From: Camarhynchus parvulus
Taxonomy: Eukaryota; Chordata; Aves; Passeriformes; Thraupidae
Direction of reading: 5' to 3'
NCBI RefSeq assembly: GCF_901933205.1
Contig: NC_044573.1
Location: forward strand, 112,961,702 to 113,025,701
Length of the DNA: 64,000 bases
Part shown: positions 50,701-63,250 of the stretch, piece by piece
Position numbering within the stretch: position 1 is the first letter of the stretch
How the letters are laid out: each line of letters begins with the position of its first letter
Position numbers and translations under genes: made by a program
Notes under the pieces: model-generated
Told to the model about the DNA's origin: nothing
The model's database searches: none
What the model saw: the letters and a program-made list of their open reading frames with translations, nothing else

Positions 50701-53669
50701 TGAGGATGAGGACGGTTACAGCAGTGAAGAGGCAGAGAATGAAGATGATGAAGATGACACTGAAGAAGCAGAGGAAGATGAGGATGAAGAGGAGGAAATG
50801 TTGTTACCGGGCATGGAGGGGAAAGAGGAGGTGCAGACCCTGGTTTTGTGTTCTGCAGCTTAGTATGGAGCTGGGGGGCACTTCGGAGACTCAGCTAGGG
50901 GTTGTTCCTATTCAGGTGGGGACAGAACACCCTGTGCACTCTCCTGGGGCTGAGGGAGCTGCTGACAGCCTGGGTTTGTGCAGAAGCTGAGGGATGGGCC
51001 TGGATCTGGATGGCAGGTTGAGATCAGAGGCTGATCCTGCTGCTGGGTGTGAGGTGCTTGGAAAGCACTGTGGAGGGAGAGCATGGGCAAGAGCAGGAGG
51101 GCTCTGCTGGCACCACAGCTCCAGGGCACAGCACGACTCCTCCGTGGGCAAGGCTCTTCAACCCATGATGGTGCAGTCAGGCAGGCCCAGGGGGTCAGGA
51201 AAAGGAGACGTGGCTTCCAAAGGTGCCAATTTCTCCCTTTGGGGAAATGTCCTGACCTGAAGTGAGGATGTGCTCAAGCTGGGCTGGGGTTGGAATTAGC
51301 ACATCAGAGCAGAGGGTACAAACCTGTGGAACGCCACAGAATCCTGACCCAGCACGCTGTATGGGACTGGGATGGAGGTGTTACCTACCCCTGCCCCTCG
51401 GTGAACACACTCCCGGTGTTTCCCACTTCCCTCGGGCCTTCTCCACTGCTCCATGTGTGCTTACCCTGGGATCTGGGACACTGCTGGGGCTGGGCAGCTG
51501 GTGCTGGTGTCCTTTATGACCTGACAGGGAGCTAGAGAAGGAAATCTCACCAGAATTGTGTCCTGCAGCCTGGCTCAGACAGCGGGACCACGGCCGTGGT
51601 GGCGCTCATCCGGGGCAAGCAGCTGATCGTGGCCAACGCGGGCGACTCGCGCTGCGTCGTGTCCGAGGGCGGCAAGGCCGTGGACATGTCCTATGACCAC
51701 AAGCCAGAGGACGAGGTGGAGCTGGCCAGGATAAAGAATGCTGGTGGCAAGGTCACCATGGACGGGAGGGTGAACGGCGGCCTCAACCTCTCCAGGGCCA
51801 TCGGTGAGCAGGGAGGGGGGTGGTGGCAAGGCTGGCCTCAGGAGAGCCACGCTGACAGCACTGCCAGCCTCTGAGGCTGTGGAACAATTTTTAATGAGAT
51901 GAGTGAAACCTCTTCAGTGTTTGATGGGAGATTTCAGTCTAATTGGAGAAAACAGCCGTGAAGCAGTTGGACACCAGTGGAAAGCAGCATCTGACACATC
52001 CCAGGCTGCTGTGCCAGCAGCTGAGTTGTCAGAAACCACCTCATGTCAAGTGTCCCAAAACCAGACTGCTGCCTCTGGAACAGGACTTTTCCTGCTTACT
52101 CGGTTATTGAGGAATCTTGGTGTGTTGCTTCCTGGGGACCTGGCTTCATGGCAGTTTGAGCCCATTTATTTGTCTGAGTGTGTACAGAAGGACACAAACC
52201 AAAACTAGTTGTTTATCTAGGGAGACACTGGCACTCCCACCTGCTATTTTGTGGTGGCCCTGGATGTCCCTTCATAGGATGATAGCTGATAAGCTGCTAG
52301 TCAGAGCTGAGGGCCAGTTTTCTCAAGGGAACTTTGAATCATACAATGAACCCTGGAATGGTTTGGGTGGGAACAGGGACCTTAAAGCTCAACCAGTTCC
52401 AGCCACAGCCATGGGCAAGGACACCTTCATTAGAGCAGGTTGTTCCAGGCCCCATCCAGCCTGGCCTTACACGCTTCCAGGGATGGGGCAGCCCCAGCCT
52501 CTCCAGAGGTGACAGTGCTGTGTGCTGTTGGCCCCAGGAGGCGGGGAAGGGGCACTTGGTTTGGAGTAAAGACAGGCTGAGCTGGCCAAGACCCCTCTTC
52601 CCTGGGCTTGCCAGAGCTTACACCTGGAACCTGCAATGGTTCCTCTGCTTGGTGGCCCACAGCCTGATCCCAGGTTGTGGGAGCACCCACTGGTCCCACT
52701 GGGAATGCCCTGTGGCAGGGCACAGCACTGCCTGTGCCCAGACATCTTCCTCCCCACCACAGGGGATCACTTCTACAAGCGGAACAAGAACCTCCCTCCA
52801 GAAGAGCAGATGATCTCTGCCTTGCCTGACATCAAAGTGCTGACAATAAACGATGACCATGACTTCATGGTCATTGCCTGTGATGGAATCTGGTGAGTGC
52901 TGAGGGAGCTGTTGTGCCTGGAGGCATCACTGCTCCAGCCTTCCTCCAGAGCTGAGCCTGAGCAAGGCCTGTTGGACACTGTGGCATGTGTGCTCCCTTT
53001 GCCTGCCTTCCTGACCCCTCTGCTCTGCAGGAACGTGATGAGCAGCCAGGAAGTGGTGGATTTCATCCAGTCGAAGATCACCCAGAAGGATGAGAATGGA
53101 GTCCTGCGGCCACTCTCCTCCATTGTAGAAGAGGTAAGGGGGGGATCTCTGCTGTCCCTTCAGCGCTGTGGCATCCCTGCTGTGTGCTGGCTCTGCCCTC
53201 CCGCTCCCTCAGATGGGTTCCCTGGGCACTCCAGCCAGTGTCTGACCCCAGGGGTGCTGTCCAGCCCAAGGAGTTTCTGCCCACATTCACAAACCTGGGG
53301 CAGCTGAGGCCATCTCTGCCCCTTGTCCGGTGGGAACAGCATTTGACTCCTCCTGCACAGGTCTGGCCTGGCAGCCCCTGACCACTGTCAGATGCTGGAG
53401 CGGGCCCAGTGCCTCAGGGTGGTGTCCCAGTGTGTGTCTGCTCTCTTGTGCTGACTTGCCCTGTCCCTCCCCAGCTGCTGGATCAGTGCTTGGCTCCAGA
53501 CACCTCAGGGGACGGCACCGGCTGCGATAACATGACCTGCATCATTATCAGCTTCAAACCCCGCAACACACACCCACCTGCTGAGAGTGGGAAGCGAAAA
53601 CTGGGGGAGGCAGCAGCACCAGCAGAGGAGAACGGTGGGGACAGCACCAAGAAGGCCAAACTGGAGTAG
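38722..53669 (+). CDS. PPM1G: PPM1G, Mg/Mn-dependent protein phosphatase 1G (PP2C gamma)
   Basis: Ten exons, 559 codons plus stop (human 546): 38722-38841, 43400-43469, 48001-48086, 48364-48496, 49801-50270, 50693-50830, 51569-51803, 52763-52892, 53031-53133, 53475-53669 (TAG). All phases agree. Nuclear PP2C-family serine/threonine phosphatase linked in the literature to pre-mRNA splicing and histone H2A-H2B exchange. It begins [12 protein letters not shown] (myristoylation-type Gly2). Metal-binding residues are present: Asp41 in RVSMED, Asp60-Gly61 in DGHGG, Asp343 in the DSGTTAV motif, Asp458 in CDGIW and Asp513 in CDNMTC. The catalytic domain is split by the family-specific acidic insert (about 265-335, nearly all Asp/Glu/Ser). 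The C-terminus has basic GKRKL and TKKAKLE, likely nuclear localisation signals. The donor after exon 6 (GTGCAG) is weak but the phase requires it. No damage seen. Confidence 0.98.
39965..40118. repeat. Tandem array of about 36-41 bp, four copies
   Basis: CACCCCTCTGCACAGAGCTG plus GGGTGTCTCAGGGACC repeated with small length changes inside PPM1G intron 1. Confidence 0.85.
41385..41870. repeat. GC-rich minisatellite with G13 run
   Basis: Degenerate units containing CCCGGTGCTGGAGCCGGGAG and CGGGGCAGGGCCCGCAGCAA. A run of 13 G lies at 41681-41693. Multiple short G runs on the plus strand could form G-quadruplexes. It sits within PPM1G intron 1. Confidence 0.85.
42473..42490. repeat. GT microsatellite
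   Basis: Nine GT units in PPM1G intron 1. Confidence 0.85.
42925..43355 (+). mobile_element. CR1 LINE 3' fragment, sense
   Basis: GAAGGTTCAGCCTGGGGAAA, GAGTCACCATCCCTAGAGGG, GTTTAAAAGCAGTGTGGATG and CCTTTCCAACCCAAACAAAT, ending near ATGATTTTCTGTG, form a typical CR1 3' end. It terminates 45 bases before PPM1G exon 2. Confidence 0.85.
45944..46129. repeat. Three near-identical 62-bp tandem copies
   Basis: Unit starts at 45944, 46006 and 46068, each beginning CAGAGGGGTTTGTGTCTGTC and containing CAGCAGCTGCAGGTCACAGT. Copies appear essentially identical, so the duplication is recent or the array is homogenised. PPM1G intron 2. Confidence 0.95.
46400..46530 (-). mobile_element. CR1 LINE fragment
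   Basis: TTTCTGCCTAATATCCCATC, CCATTTCCCCTTGTCCTGTC and CTTGTCAGAGGTCCTCTCC follow antisense CR1. PPM1G intron 2. Confidence 0.75.
52325..52512 (-). mobile_element. CR1 LINE 3' fragment
   Basis: GAATCATACAATGAACCCTG, AATGGTTTGGGTGGGAACAG, CCATGGGCAAGGACACCTTC and CCTGGCCTTACACGCTTCC match an antisense CR1 3' end in PPM1G intron 7. Confidence 0.85.
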
Positions 53670-56987: not shown

Positions 56988-59900
56988 TCACTCCACAGGG
57001 ACACCCACGGAGCTGCCCCTGTCACTGGTGGCTCCCAGGGAGTCCCCAGAGAGGCTCTGCCCAGACAGGGCACTGCTGAGGCTCTGCTGCCGGGCAGAAC
57101 GTGGCACTGCTTCCACCGACACCTCCACCTCGATGGTGACACCTTCCCTGCAGACAGACAGACAGACACCAGCCTGAGGGCAGCGGCCCCAAGGGGAACA
57201 TCCCATCCCTGCCCAGCACAGCGGGGACACTGTTTGAAGGGACGTGCCAGCCCCTCGGCACCCTGCCTACCTGTCAGAGGTGTCCTGGCCCTCACTCAGC
57301 ATGCTCCCAGCGAGGGCCACCGTGCTGGCTGACTGGCTGTCCCCTTGTGGCCGTGCCGGGCGCGGGCTGCGGCCGCTGCTGGGCAGGGAGAGGGAGGTGG
57401 CGGCGTCCGGAGCTCCGTCCTCGGCCGCTCTGGGGCTGGGCAGCGCCGACCAAAGCTCGTTCACTGCAGAGAGAGAGAGAACACGCCGTTCCACGGACTG
57501 CCCCGCTGCACAGGAGGGCACAGCCCAGGCCTGCCAGCTCTGAGGGACCCACGCTTGGCCAGGTTGTCCAGCTCCACCACGCCGAGGTCGCCAGGCGTGC
57601 GGCCGCCCCTGCAGCCCCAGCGGCTCCGGCACAGCGACAGCACCACGGTCCCGTACACATAGGTGAGCACCAGGGGCACGCCGACACCTGCGGGCACACA
57701 AAGGGTCACTGCCCAGCCCAGCCCAGCCCGGCTGGCCCCAGACAGCCCCCACAGTGCCACCCCCACCGTGGGCAGTGCCCTCGGCACTCACCCACAGTGA
57801 GAGCTGTTATGATAGGGGACACAAAGAGGGACAGGAGGACACTGCTGGTGACAGAGAGGCACTGCTGGCACCCGGACAGGCTGCTCCGCCGGCTCTGGCC
57901 CAGCACCTCGGGGACAAGACAGAAAGGTGAAGGGCTCCACAAAGACCTCAGCACAGCCCCAGGGACTCAGCCTCTTCCCAGCCTGGCAGAGCTCCAGCCA
58001 CAGCCACCCAGACACCCCTTCCTCGCCCCAGGGACAGGCAGCTACCACAGCACTGCCACCACAGCACAGGTGTCCCTGGAAAGCCCCCCTAGGACCCTTC
58101 CTCCTTTTGCCCACCCTGACCCCACTCCCCAGGCTGAGCACACCTGCACTGGCAGGGGCTGCTGGGGGCAGCAGCAGGTCCTGGCAAGGCAGGACTGGGC
58201 TGTCAGGGGTGGCACAGGGATGTGCTGAGGGCTATCAGGGGTGACACAGGGATGTGCTGAGGGTGGTCAGGGGTGGCACAGGGATGTGCTGTGGGCAGCA
58301 GGGAGCACTGCAGGTCTGTCCAGGCCAAGAGCCATGGGGTACCAGGTTCAGCAGGGAGCAGGACCACAGCTGCCAGTACCTTCCTACCCATGTAGATGGG
58401 GATCCCAATGGTGATGACAGGGACAGCAACGCCTGCAGCAAGGGAGATGACCATGGGCGCTCCCAGCACCATGCCCAGCTGCCACAGGATCCTCCGGGTC
58501 CGGGACCACGGCCTCTTCCCCCAGAAGGTGCAGCCAGAGGGGCTGTGGGCAGAGAGCAGGGCTGAGCCAAGGCTTCTGTGAGTGGCAGCAGAGACCAGCA
58601 GAGTCTGGCCCCATGTCAGGGACATCCACAAGCCCACCTGAGAGCAGGCAGCCAGGCTCCCCAACCCTGAGCTCCAGCTGCCTCCCACGGGGTGCCAGCA
58701 GCCAGCCCCAGCCCCAGCCAGCAGCACAGAGCACCCTGCTCCCCCTGGCTAACCCCAAACCTGGGGCAGGGCCTGGCTGCCCCCATCCCAGCTCCCCATC
58801 CTGTCAGGGCCCCCAGCCCCAAGGCTCTGCACTGACCTCAGAAAGTGCACGTCAGAGATCTCCTGCAGGCAGAGCCAGCAGAAGAGGCAGCCACAGACTG
58901 TGCAGTTCATGCGATTGCAGCTGCCATCATTGATCTTCATGATGAAGGCGCTGCAGCGAGGACAGACCTTGATGTCCTCGGCCTCAGCTGGGGGGAGACA
59001 AGATGGGATGGGGGAGCAGGACAGAGCAGTGTGCGTCCATCCCAGTCTGTCCCAGTGTGCATCCATGCCAGCCTGTCTCAGGCCTGTCCCTGTCCCAGTG
59101 TTCATCCATGCCAGCCGGTCCCAGCCTGTCCCTGTCCCAGTGTTCATCCATCCCAGCCTGTCCCTGTCCCAGTGTGCATCCATCCCAGCCTTCCTCATCC
59201 CACAGGAATCATGGGGGGAGCCAAGGTCCCTCTACACACTCCAGCCCAAGTGGCACAGGGGCTGTGAGATGCATCAGAGGGAGCTCTGGATCCTGGCTGC
59301 AGCAGCCCCCCAGGCAGGAGGCAGAGAGGCACAGGGCTGTGCCAAACCCCAGCCCTGCTGCTCCCACCCCTGGCCAGGGTGGGCTCACCGTGGGCTGGCT
59401 CCTCGGGCTGTGCTGAGGGCGTGGCCAGGCTGGGGGTGGGTGCCACCGGAGCACAGGGGCCCTCGGGGTGCCAGGGCTGCCGGCAGTGGTAGCAGAACTC
59501 GGTGCCACAGCCCTCACGGCCGCAGGTGAGGCGGGGACACTCGGCACAGCCATGGGCAAGGACAGCGTAGCTGTGGGGAGAGGGCAGCAGGGGCTGGGGC
59601 ACAGCAGGGCACCAGCTGGGGCTGGGGCACAGCAGGGCACCCCTCCCCGCACAGCCAGGCCAGGCTGTGCCAGTCCTGGTCCTGCACTGAGCTGGAGCCA
59701 CAGCCCCGGCTCAGGAGAGCTGGGACCCCCCCTCAGCTGGGATCCCACCCTGTCCAGCAGCCCTGGGGCTCACAGAGTACCTAGCACAGCCAAGGAGACA
59801 AGAGCTGCACAGGCTCTGCAGCCAGACCAGGACTGGACACCTCCCTGGGCACAGCCGGCCCAAGGCAGGACAAAGGGATGGGAACCCGGCCTGGGAAGGG

Positions 59901-60520
59901 CTCACAGGACACGGGCACACCCTGCACCCCGCCCCGCATTCCCGCCCGTGCTGCGGTACCTGCAGTCGGGGGCAGGGCACCAGCGGGTGCCGGGGTCCGC
60001 CACCAGCAGCCGCCGCAGCAGGAACTCCTCGTACTTGTCGCGGAGGGCGGGCTCGGGGAGGAGCCGGTGCACGTCGTGGGGCTGGATGGCGGCGGGGCAG
60101 TGCGGGCAGGCCACGGGCACGCGGCTCTCGGTGACGGCCAGGCGCAGGTACTGCTGCAGGCAGCCCCGGCAGGAGCGGTGCGAGCAGCAGCCCAGCGCGG
60201 GGAACGCCTCGGGGGGCTGCGGCAGCAGGCACAGGGGACACTCCTCCAGCGCCTCGCCCAGGGCCAGCACCACCTGGGGCTCCTCGGGCTCCGGTGGCTC
60301 CGGTTCTGGTGGTGCCTCCCCCCGGCGGGCCGTGGCTTCCTCCTGAAGCAGCCCAGGAGGCGGCGGGGCCCGGGCACACGCGTGGGCTGCTCCATGGTGG
60401 CCCAAGGAGGCGGCCAGGGCTGCCGTGAGCTACGGAGGGCAGCGGGGAGGAGCTGGCCCGGGGGCGGCCCCCATGGCCCGGCTCCTACCCGGGCCTCACC
60501 ACGGGCGGCAGCGGAGCCAT
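56988..60520 (-). CDS. RNF19-type RBR E3 ubiquitin ligase paralogue with altered RING2 triad
   Basis: Coding exons: 60520-60500, 60429-59960, 59570-59389, 58987-58837, 58542-58380, 57906-57792, 57687-57553, 57463-57271, 57147-56988 (TGA); 529 codons plus stop, phases consistent. RBR ligases take ubiquitin from E2 onto a RING2 cysteine. RING1 starts ECPLCLL with SHRSCRGC; then the IBR ([16 protein letters not shown] to EFCYHC), RING2 (residues 233-264), and two hydrophobic membrane segments (exons 58542-58380 and 57906-57553) after [14 protein letters not shown], as in RNF19A/B. The tail keeps ASTVALAGS and EVEVSVEA, echoing RNF19. It is shorter than RNF19A/B (over 700 residues). The catalytic Cys248 is present, but the usual Cys-x-His is Cys-Asn-Arg250 and the usual Glu-Phe-Cys is Leu259-Phe-Cys. 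The start ATG at 60520 (GGGATGG context) follows from a 70-base intron that joins in frame. Neither RNF19A nor RNF19B orthology is clear. Confidence 0.88.
58196..58300. repeat. 33-bp tandem repeat, three copies
   Basis: TCAGGGGTGGCACAGGGATG plus TGCTGAGGG, three times, in an intron of the RNF19-like gene. Confidence 0.9.
59030..59190. repeat. Tandem CATCCATSCCAGCCTGTCCC array
   Basis: Degenerate units of CATCCATCCCAGCCTGTCCC and TGTCCCAGTGTTCATCC lie in the intron just 5' of the RING2 exon of the RNF19-like gene. Confidence 0.85.
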
Positions 60521-60589
60521 CCCCAGGCGCAGTCGGTGCCGCTCAGCCTGCAGAGGAACAGAGAGAGAGGAACTGAGAGCCAGCCTGTG

Positions 60590-60930
60590 CCCTGGGACAG
60601 CCCCCGAGAGCCTGGGACAGCCCCTGAGAGCCAGCCTGTGCCCTGGGACAGCCCCCGAGAGCCTGGGACAGCCCCCGAGAGCCGGCCTGTGCCTGGGACA
60701 GCCCCCGAGAGCCTGGGACAGCCCCCGAGAGCCGGCCTGGGCCCTGGGACAGCCCCCGAGAGCCTGGGACAGCCCCCGAGAGCCGGCCTGGGCCCTGGGA
60801 CAGCCCCCGAGAGCCGGCCTGGGCCCTGGGACAGCCCCCGAGAGCCTGGGACAGCCCCCGAGAGCCGGCCTGGGCCCTGGGACAGCCCCCGAGAGCCAGC
60901 CTGTGCCTGGGACAGCCCCCGAGCCTATTC
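60590..60930. repeat. GGGACAGCCCCCGAGAGCC minisatellite
   Basis: About 340 bases built from CCTGGGACAGCCCCCGAGAG alternating with CCGGCCTGGGCC or CCAGCCTGTGCC. It starts 45 bases beyond the 5' exon 60547-60500 of the RNF19-like gene. Confidence 0.95.
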
Positions 60931-61393: not shown

Positions 61394-61531
61394 GGGGACA
61401 CGGCGCTTCCCGGGGCACACGGCGCTCCCCGGGGCACACGGCGCTCCCCGGGGCACACGGCGCTCCCCGGGGCACACGGCGCTTCCCGGGGCACACGGCG
61501 CTCCCCGGGGCACACGGAGTTTCCCAGGGAG
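61394..61531. repeat. 19-bp GC-rich tandem array, about seven copies
   Basis: Unit GGCACACGGCGCTCCCCGG with a CTTCCC variant; highly regular. It lies in the 5' intron of the RNF19-like gene, about 70 bases from exon 61690-61603. Confidence 0.95.
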
Positions 61532-61599: not shown

Positions 61600-63250
61600 T
61601 ACCTGTCAGCGGGGAATCATCGCTGGCAGCACGGCACGGCCACGGCTCCGCCGGGACGGCCGCAGCCCGGCACCCGCAGCGCCCGTGGACCTGCGAAGGG
61701 ACAGCGGCGATCCGTGAAGGGCCGAGCGCGGCTCACGCAGCCGGACGCGGAGCGGAGCCACCGGAGAGCCCCGCGAGTGGTGCCGGTGGGGATGGGCACG
61801 GCCCGGGGACACCGCTGGCTGCACCGGCCACCTTCGGGACCGGCCAGAGCGCGGCGGGACCGGCCGGCCAGCGGCGCTCGGGCCCAGCGGGCGAGAGGCC
61901 AAGCCCCGGGTGTCGCCGGGGTGACCGCGCGGGGACACCGGCGAGGACTCACCGGGCTCTGCCCTCCGCGGCGCCGCTCGGCGGGGCCGGACCCGGAGGA
62001 CACCGCAGCCGCAGCCGCCCCTGACGGGGCACAGAGACCGGCAGCGTCCGGCAGCGGCCCCGGTGCCGGTCCCGGCGGTGCCACCGCCTCCCGCCGGCCG
62101 GAAGGGGCGGAGCCGCGGCTGTCCCGCCCGAGCCCCGAGCGCCGCCCGCCTGTGCCGTGCTCGGTCCCGGCCCGTTCCGGCCGCTCGCCCCCGCCGGGCC
62201 CGGGCCCGCTCCCCTCATGCCGCGGCCGCGGGGCGGGCGGGGCCGGGGGCGCGTCTGCGCACGCGCCCGCTCCGCTTCCGGGTCGCGCGGGCGCTTCCGG
62301 CCCAGCCCCCCGCGCGCCCGGGGGAAGCGGAAGCGGAAGTGTCCGGTCGAGGCGGGCGGCGGCGGCCGCCCCGGGCTGGCGGGGGCGGCTGGCGGGCCGC
62401 GGGCGGGCGGGCGGCGGGGCCGGGCCGGCGCCGGGGCCCGCCACGATGCCCCGGCGGAAGCAGAGTCACCCGCAGCCGGTGAAGGGTGAGTGCGCGGCGG
62501 GCCCGGGGGGCGGCGGCGGCGGCCCGGCGGGGACCCGCGGCGCTCGGAGCGCTGCAGCGGACGCCGAGGATGGCACCGAGGAGACGGCAAGAGCGGCGGT
62601 GGTGCTGCCCGGGAACCTGCTGCTGGGCCGTGGCCCCGCCTCCGAGAAGGGACCGCCAGGTGCGTGCGGCCCCCGCGGGGACGCCGCCCCTCTCCGGCAG
62701 CCCCGCCGGCGGCGACGCGGCCCGGCGGGCCGTACCGGGCCCGCGCTCGGCGCATCCGGCCGGGCCCGCCATGCCCCGGGCCCGCCCGGCGCGGGCTCCG
62801 GCCGAGCTTCCTCTCACGGTGGAGGCCCGGCCCCCGACGGGGCCCCGGCGTGGGTTCCGCCCGCCCGGCATTGACCCCCGGCACCGATCCCCGAACGCTC
62901 CTTCCCGCCAGGAGCCCGGGCACGACGCGTCCCCGCGGTGGGTTCGGGGCCGCGCCCCGCGGCCGGGCTTATGCCAGAGCCAGCGCAGCGCTCAGCCCCG
63001 GGGTCCCGTTCCACCGCTCCCCTCGGCGCTGCGGGGCGAACGGAGCGCGCTGAGCCCCGGCGCCCCGGCCCGGCGCCACGGGCAGCGCCTGTCCCGAGCC
63101 TGGGTCAGCCCCGGCCGACGCGGCCGGAGGAGCGAGCGCTGCTCAGCTCCAGGGAGCTGCTCACGGGACTGGTGGGAGGCGCTCCCCGCCCCGGGCACCG
63201 AGCAACGCGGGAACGGAACGGCGAGAGATGAGGGCACGGACTGTCCGGCC
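61600..63250. promoter_or_regulatory. CpG island and divergent promoter, RNF19-like / ZNF513
   Basis: Extremely CpG-rich. The RNF19-like first exon (ending 61953) runs left and ZNF513 starts at 62446 running right. ETS-type elements are visible: CTTCCGG near 62275 and 62292, and GCGGAAGCGGAAGTG near 62330. No TATA box. The arrangement mirrors the NRBP1/PPM1G promoter at 38 kb. Confidence 0.65.
62446..62659 (+). CDS. ZNF513: ZNF513, first two coding exons (rest outside window)
   Basis: C2H2 zinc-finger transcription factor; the human gene is tied to retinal disease. The start MPRRKQSHPQPVK is identical to the family N-terminus (a FOG/SALL-like MSRRKQ-type repression motif). Exon 1: 62446-62485, donor GTGAG, phase 1. 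Exon 2: 62558-62659, acceptor GCTGCAG, donor GTGCGT. It reads ADAEDGTEE, then VVLPGNLLLGRG, aligning with human TEDSLDEG and the DLLLGQD stretch. The 72-base intron between them is a multiple of three with no stop, so retention would only insert 24 residues. No zinc-finger exon lies in the window. Exon 2 limits are less certain than exon 1. Confidence 0.82.

What the first reader, a model, noticed from the sequence alone, without database searches (positions are those of the whole stretch)
58837..58987. RBR ligase whose RING2 keeps the catalytic Cys but loses the triad His and Glu
Seen: the RING2 exon reads Gly-Ser-Cys248-Asn-Arg250-Met-Asn-Cys and Cys-Gly-Cys-Leu259-Phe-Cys-Trp. Known: in parkin, HOIP, HHARI and RNF19A/B the pattern is Cys-x-His and Glu-(Phe/Trp)-Cys, and those His/Glu residues assist thioester transfer. 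Inference: this paralogue may be catalytically weakened, may use another base, or may act as a membrane scaffold or regulator. All zinc-ligand cysteines are retained, so simple decay is unlikely; the reading frame is intact over nine exons.
Basis: partly seen in the sequence, partly recalled or inferred. Interest (0 to 1): 0.78.

Follow-up and report, generated by a model that had tools for sequence, protein, structure and literature searches.

The report
Ancient RNF19 paralogue, rewired active site
A bird gene for a membrane ubiquitin ligase keeps its reactive cysteine but has swapped the two helper residues beside it; relatives from sharks to birds share the swap, so it is an old, maintained change rather than an error, although what it does to the chemistry is untested.

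Summary
The RING2 exon is at 58987-58837 (minus strand), with Cys248, Arg250 and Leu259. RNF19A and RNF19B in the same genome have the usual His and Glu. The window gene is a third RNF19 paralogue: its 216 retrieved homologues (shark, ray-finned fish, coelacanth, lungfish, amphibians, squamates, alligator, birds) plus the window lie on one side of the tree against RNF19A/B. Site 250 is Arg in 213 of 217 rows, His in 3 (Haliaeetus), Cys in 1 (Falco). Site 259 is Gln in 110, Leu in 107, never Glu. The catalytic Cys is kept in 217 of 217. RNF19A is His/Glu in 120 of 120 rows, tetrapods where named. So this is neither a sequencing error nor a private mutation. It does not by itself mean a dead enzyme: 8 of 13 human RBRs have that His (PMC3730226), and RNF144A, whose copy in this genome lacks it, is active in vitro (PMC5758712). 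Best reading: a thioester-forming ligase with His-independent transfer, unproven. 'Frame intact over nine exons' fails at the N-terminus: a frame break lies in a G run at 60323-60318.

The parts
58837..58987 (-). RING2 exon with Cys248, Arg250, Leu259 (the finding)
   Evidence: spliced translation; profile match, (L026, read)
58917..58919 (-). codon TGC of the catalytic Cys248
   Evidence: invariant in 217 of 217 rows
58911..58913 (-). codon CGC of Arg250, in place of the RNF19A/B His
   Evidence: Arg in 213 of 217 rows
58884..58886 (-). codon CTC of Leu259, in place of the RNF19A/B Glu
   Evidence: Gln 110, Leu 107 of 217 rows
An orthologue-like start ATG lies at 60395-60393 in another frame
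60318..60323 (-). run of G in which the orthologue-like N-terminal frame and the RING1 frame part
59389..59570 (-). IBR exon
   Evidence: Pfam IBR
58380..58542 (-). exon with the Ser-Pro-Ser-Gly-Cys-Thr-Phe-Trp-Gly-Lys motif and the first membrane helix (helix assigned from the model of P0001)
   Evidence: homologous exons in RNF19A and RNF19B of the same genome
57792..57906 (-). exon, first part of the second membrane helix (inferred)
57553..57687 (-). exon, end of the second membrane helix (inferred)
57271..57463 (-). C-tail exon with an Ala-Ser-Thr-Val-Ala-Leu-Ala-Gly motif (Met for Val in the RNF19A of this genome)
56988..57147 (-). last coding exon, ends with the stop codon at 56990-56988

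Best explanation
The gene is a third RNF19 paralogue of jawed vertebrates: RING1-IBR-RING2, two membrane helices and a shorter tail. Read from the tree, the active-site His became Arg once and the acid Glu became Gln once at the base of this line, and Gln later became Leu in the lobe-finned lineage that led to birds. I think it still works as an RBR ligase. RING1 takes an E2~ubiquitin (UBE2L3 by analogy with RNF19A/B), Cys248 accepts the ubiquitin as a thioester, and RING2 passes it to an acceptor without a neighbouring His base. The base would come from the substrate or a partner, or the acceptor would need no strong base, while Arg250 would hold the thiolate or oxyanion by charge. Shown here: the sequence, its age and its conservation. 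Inferred: the direction of the changes (no outgroup root) and all enzymology.
For: All 217 rows keep the nucleophile Cys248, and Gly246, Asn249, Phe260 and Trp262 around it. RING1 zinc positions are kept in 215 or 216 of 217 rows each, RING2 Cys/His positions in 216 or 217, IBR positions in 210 to 217 with the shortfall mostly gaps. A mere scaffold would not need the extra, non-zinc Cys. Of eight stretches, RING2 has the lowest mean rate (0.34; C-tail 1.44; 46 rows). RBRs without that His are read in this same genome: RNF14-like Cys-Asn-Lys, RNF144A/B-like Cys-Ala-Gln, HOIL-1-like Cys-Asp-Trp (names by my recognition). RNF144A's RBR is active in vitro (PMC5758712, passages). HOIP H887A still reacted with a ubiquitin probe though it did not transfer; Q896A had no effect (PMC3730226 section 8). 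The shark row differs from chicken RNF19A at 9 of 49 positions around RING2, and within 242-268 only at 250 and 259. Minimum changes on the 338-row tree, built without those two columns: 4 at site 250 (1 between RNF19A/B and this clade, 1 for Falco, 2 for the Haliaeetus rows) and 2 at site 259.
Against: No activity data for this protein in anything I read. In parkin, H433 is needed in cells and its mutants react poorly with a ubiquitin probe at neutral pH, so the thioester step itself could suffer; H433A and E444A both lowered autoubiquitination and probe reaction in vitro, and E444Q is a patient mutation (PMC3730226, passages). HOIP H887A is inactive. Arg250 is not absolutely fixed: Cys in Falco, His in Haliaeetus; its relative rate is 0.38, the 37th percentile of 529 sites. 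No His appears among the 15 polar or charged columns that are at least 90% fixed in this clade and nearly absent from RNF19A, so no replacement base is visible. Rows are not independent (isoforms, many birds); on 227-330 they collapse to 100 distinct sequences, 97 with Arg. The RNF19A set is tetrapod where named, and RNF19B is this genome's copy alone.
Confidence: 0.55

Rival explanations
1. Pseudo-ligase or regulator: the protein charges poorly or holds ubiquitin without passing it on, and acts as a membrane scaffold or brake on RNF19A/B by sharing E2, substrate or membrane partners.
For: The His is needed for transfer in HOIP and parkin. Both triad helpers differ throughout the clade and never return as a pair (0 of 217 rows). 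RNF19A and RNF19B persist alongside it in the same genome.
Against: Cys248 and RING1 Leu positions 73, 75 and 76 (E2-facing by recall) are kept in 215 to 217 of 217 rows. Several RBRs without the His are read in this genome, and RNF144A is active.
Confidence: 0.28
2. Changed acceptor choice: a ligase that transfers to hydroxyl, thiol or small-molecule groups rather than lysine, as HOIL-1 does for Ser/Thr and sugars.
For: HOIL-1, an RBR without the +2 His (Trp462), makes ester bonds (PMC9853177, passages). ARIH1 makes both kinds of bond (PMC10657180, abstract and section 8). RNF19A/B can ubiquitinate a synthetic secondary amine (PMC13038411, passages).
Against: HOIL-1 still needs a His (H510), placed by a special zinc cluster; no such His was seen here. 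ARIH1 makes esters although the ARIH1-like gene here has the His (L017), so a missing His is not the cause.
Confidence: 0.13
3. Decay, sequencing error or private mutation at the active site.
For: The frame break in the G run at 60323-60318, and the changes of Arg250 in Falco and Haliaeetus, show that slips or drift do occur in this gene.
Against: Arg stands in 213 of 217 rows at 250 and no row has Glu at 259, over lineages from shark to birds.
Confidence: 0.02

Closest known systems
RNF19A (Dorfin) and RNF19B (NKLAM)
   Same: RING1-IBR-RING2 order, the Ser-Pro-Ser-Gly-Cys-Thr-Phe-Trp-Gly-Lys motif, the following membrane-helix exons and C-tail motifs; the only genes of this genome that matched the RING2-plus-helix query besides the gene itself
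   Different: RNF19A/B have Cys-Asn-His and Glu (120 of 120 RNF19A rows; RNF19B of this genome). The window clade has Cys-Asn-Arg and Gln/Leu, and its listed rows are mostly shorter
RNF14
   Same: A basic residue two places after the catalytic Cys (Cys-Asn-Lys) and Tyr, no acid, at the Glu position (L029; name by recognition)
   Different: Another RBR branch; no membrane helices known to me (recall); its activity is recalled, not read (searches found nothing)
RNF144A/B
   Same: RBR ligases without the +2 His (Cys-Ala-Gln, L018/L019); RNF144A has a C-terminal membrane element and is active in vitro (PMC5758712, passages)
   Different: Gln rather than Arg; one membrane element rather than two helices
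HOIL-1 (RBCK1)
   Same: Catalytic Cys without the +2 His (Trp, L030)
   Different: Uses His510 from a binuclear zinc cluster (PMC9853177, passages); no counterpart seen here

Membership tests
RBR E3 ubiquitin ligases | RING1 with C3HC4 zinc ligands | tested here: met
   8 positions (assigned from recall), each kept in 215 or 216 of 217 rows
RBR E3 ubiquitin ligases | IBR domain | tested here: met
   Pfam IBR PF01485, E 2e-17, 63.5 bits over cut-off 24.3
RBR E3 ubiquitin ligases | RING2 with catalytic Cys | tested here: met
   Cys in 217 of 217 rows. Pfam IBR_1 just below its cut-off for the window protein (25.9 against 27) and for P0001 (26.9), above it for the shark row (30.1)
RBR E3 ubiquitin ligases | E2-to-Cys thioester and transfer activity | not testable with these tools
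   needs an assay
RBR ligases with the Cys-His-Glu triad | His two residues after the Cys, acid at the Glu444 position | tested here: not met
   Arg 213, His 3, Cys 1; Gln 110, Leu 107, Glu 0 of 217. A subset feature: 8 of 13 human RBRs have the His
RNF19 subfamily | RBR followed by two membrane helices | tested here: met
   exons homologous to those of RNF19A/B; predicted helices 269-316 and 321-370 in P0001, in a model of low overall confidence (mean pLDDT 57)
RNF19 subfamily | closest kin are RNF19A/B, from which it is a separate paralogue | tested here: met
   own-genome search finds only itself and the RNF19A/B places at E up to 0.001. In trees of RNF19 sequences the third group is one side of a branch, support 100 (52 rows; 338 rows). 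No invertebrate or other RBR outgroup, so the root is not fixed
RNF19A or RNF19B proper | orthology with either | tested here: not met
   separate RNF19A (contig C2) and RNF19B (contig C23) genes in the same genome; one species holds both this gene and RNF19A in several cases, such as Lonchura striata (P0006, P0181) and Rhinatrema bivittatum (P0072, P0221); tree

The most novel reading that the evidence does not exclude
A jawed-vertebrate RBR ligase line, apparently missing from mammals, replaced its general base with a permanently charged Arg and has kept that site since before sharks and bony fish parted. It would be a stable ubiquitin-thioester carrier on a membrane with a transfer chemistry unlike RNF19A/B (substrate-supplied base, or non-lysine acceptors).
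Probability: 0.2. Interest if true: 0.72.

Novelty: new variant of a known kind. Interest (0 to 1): 0.45.

Why it matters
Nature has made the His-to-Arg, Glu-to-Gln/Leu replacement in a ligase otherwise close to RNF19A/B and kept it in lineages from shark to birds. That gives a clean pair for asking how much of RBR catalysis needs the His. Source annotation calls the gene RNF19A, RNF19B, RNF19A-like or RNF19B-like, so bird and fish work under those names may concern a different gene from mammalian RNF19A/B. In the held library 'RNF19C' is in 0 papers and 'RNF19B-like' in 3 (an aphid, a mosquito and a carp-goldfish study by title; one passage of the last read). A search for RNF19A, RNF19B, paralog, vertebrate and RBR (at least 4 of 5) gave 3 papers, seen as a listing, none about a third gene by title. 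Other names were not searched.

Tried and rejected
Private mutation or sequencing error at Arg250/Leu259: rejected by 216 homologues.

A compensating new His near the site, as in HOIL-1: looked for at a 90% threshold against RNF19A and not found.

Structure: AlphaFold2 of P0001 with a 40-sequence alignment gave mean pLDDT 57 and pTM 0.32. Foldseek against the PDB returned RBR ligases at the top (ARIH2, ARIH1, RNF216, parkin, HOIP, HOIL-1; TM-scores by query length at most 0.25). This fits the family but says nothing on the active site; the model was not used further.

Codon-level selection (dN/dS) was not done: I had orthologue proteins, not their DNA. Protein site rates were used instead, and they speak only moderately for Arg250 (37th percentile).

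The ancestral state was not rooted with invertebrate RNF19: the three protein searches list only the best 120 rows of 1070, 1499 and 1503. RNF19A rows are tetrapod where named; fish RNF19A and other species' RNF19B were not seen.

Loss in mammals, turtles and frogs is inferred from absence among the named rows, which reaches down to teleosts; it was not tested in genomes.

Paper searches for RNF14 activity found nothing; a search for RBR with 'pseudoligase' gave 0 papers.

Full report
What is there. The RING2 exon at 58987-58837 on the minus strand reads Gly-Ser-Cys-Asn-Arg-Met-Asn-Cys and Cys-Gly-Cys-Leu-Phe-Cys-Trp exactly as reported, with AG/GT borders; the three codons are TGC 58919-58917, CGC 58913-58911 and CTC 58886-58884.

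The 16 orthologues whose N-termini I printed run from their start straight into RING1; passerine ones begin like Met-Glu-Gln-Pro-Thr-Arg-Val. The window encodes such a start from an ATG at 60395, but in another frame than RING1, with the break in a run of G at 60323-60318. Whether it is an assembly slip or a real frameshift allele I could not tell: the check for a second copy did not complete. Intact copies exist in relatives. RING2 is not touched by this.

The comparison inside one genome. The window lies near the end of contig C3 of a 1.05-Gb genome, a bird's by its closest proteins. The same genome holds an RNF19A-like gene on C2 and an RNF19B-like gene on C23; both read Cys-Asn-His-Met and Cys-Glu-Phe-Cys. 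I then read the catalytic loop of RBR genes found by the IBR_1 profile (49 matches, 30 returned as loci, 27 translated). Thirteen genes gave a readable loop. Eight have His (ARIH1-, ARIH2-, parkin-, ANKIB1-, RNF31-, RNF217-, RNF19A- and RNF19B-like). Five do not: RNF144A- and RNF144B-like Gln, RNF14-like Lys, HOIL-1-like Trp, and the window Arg. Gene names are my recognition from the sequence, not a tool result. For human the published count is 8 of 13 with His, 6 of those with an acid at the Glu position (PMC3730226, section 8 read); the two sets of thirteen are not the same genes (here no RNF216 or CUL9 loop was read, and the window gene is added).

Age and conservation. Three protein searches list 120 rows each (of 1070, 1499 and 1503). 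The window-gene search and the coelacanth search together give 216 distinct rows. Residue 250 is Arg in 213 of 217 (window included), His in 3 (two Haliaeetus species) and Cys in 1 (the Falco peregrinus cluster). Residue 259 is Gln in 110 and Leu in 107, never Glu; the Gln rows are ray-finned fish and shark where named. All 120 RNF19A rows are His/Glu; they are tetrapods where named. Rows are not independent species; on 227-330 they collapse to 100 distinct sequences, 97 with Arg. A tree of 52 rows puts the window clade on one side of a branch against RNF19A/B (SH-aLRT 100) and orders it shark, ray-finned fish, coelacanth, lungfish, amphibians, squamates, alligator, birds, some forks with support under 95. 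A tree of all 338 rows, built without columns 250 and 259, agrees. It needs 4 changes at site 250 (1 between RNF19A/B and this clade, 1 for Falco, 2 for the Haliaeetus rows) and 2 at site 259. The exceptions at 250 are what single CpG-type changes of a CGC codon would give; the codons of those species were not seen. Arg250's rate is below average but not minimal (0.38, 37th percentile), so the Arg itself tolerates change in some birds; the Cys and Asn beside it are slower (8th and 5th percentile).

The shark row is telling. Against chicken RNF19A it differs at 9 of 49 positions in 227-275; between 242 and 268 the only two differences are 250 (His to Arg) and 259 (Glu to Gln). Of 15 polar or charged columns at least 90% fixed in the clade and nearly absent from RNF19A, the shark shares 6 (164, 220, 228, 250, 457, 508). 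So the triad change is among the early, kept changes that mark this paralogue.

How it may work. Shown elsewhere: in HOIP the His887Ala enzyme still reacts with a ubiquitin probe but is inactive in transfer, and Gln896Ala has no effect (PMC3730226, section 8). In parkin His433 is needed and Glu444 is not needed in cells (PMC3709503, passages), but in vitro both mutations lower autoubiquitination and probe reaction, and E444Q is a patient mutation (PMC3709503 and PMC3730226, passages). HOIL-1 without the +2 His uses another His (PMC9853177, passages). RNF144A's RBR is active in vitro (PMC5758712, passages). RNF19A activity on a small molecule needs the RBR core with the catalytic Cys and at least one membrane domain (PMC13038411, passages). 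Inferred from these: the change at the Glu position may matter little, as in HOIP, or some, as in parkin in vitro; His to Arg may leave thioester formation possible (HOIP) or impair it (parkin), and makes lysine transfer depend on another base or another acceptor. The invariance of Cys248 over the whole clade argues for thioester formation and against a pure scaffold. No replacement His fixed in this clade was found.

Setting. The gene lies between a PP2C phosphatase gene (Pfam PP2C on joined exons; PPM1G by recognition) and a start that I recognise as ZNF513 near 62400. From memory, PPM1G and ZNF513 are neighbours in human. The human RBR list in PMC3305615 (passages) has RNF19A and RNF19B as its only RNF19 members. 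No named mammal, turtle or frog is among the 120 rows, although teleosts are. Loss in those lineages is therefore likely but not tested.

Verdict. New variant of a known kind; moderately interesting because it offers a natural, long-kept test of the RBR triad.

Noticed in passing
window 60318-60323 and 60393-60395: Frame break in a G run between the orthologue-like start of the gene and RING1; assembly slip or private frameshift.
   Followed up: partly
P0022, P0053, P0055 (Haliaeetus) and P0019 (Falco): Two raptor lineages changed Arg250 to His or Cys, the two amino acids that CpG-type transitions of a CGC codon would give; the Aquila (P0028) and Morphnus (P0044) rows keep Arg.
   Followed up: partly
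window 60575-60923 and 61394-61517: Minisatellite arrays upstream of the gene (periods such as 51 and 19, 97% and 96% matches).
   Followed up: no
window about 51570-53669 and about 62400: Neighbours: a PP2C phosphatase gene (Pfam PP2C on joined exons; PPM1G by recognition) and a ZNF513-like start (recognition only).
   Followed up: partly
PMC7658342 (passages): Chicken and salmon expression studies cited there as NKLAM/RNF19B could concern this third paralogue, because annotation of birds and fish calls it RNF19A or RNF19B (-like). Not checked.
   Followed up: no
one search list: No named turtle, frog or mammal among the best 120 rows, while caecilians, a salamander, squamates, alligator and fish are there: possible lineage losses.
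   Followed up: no
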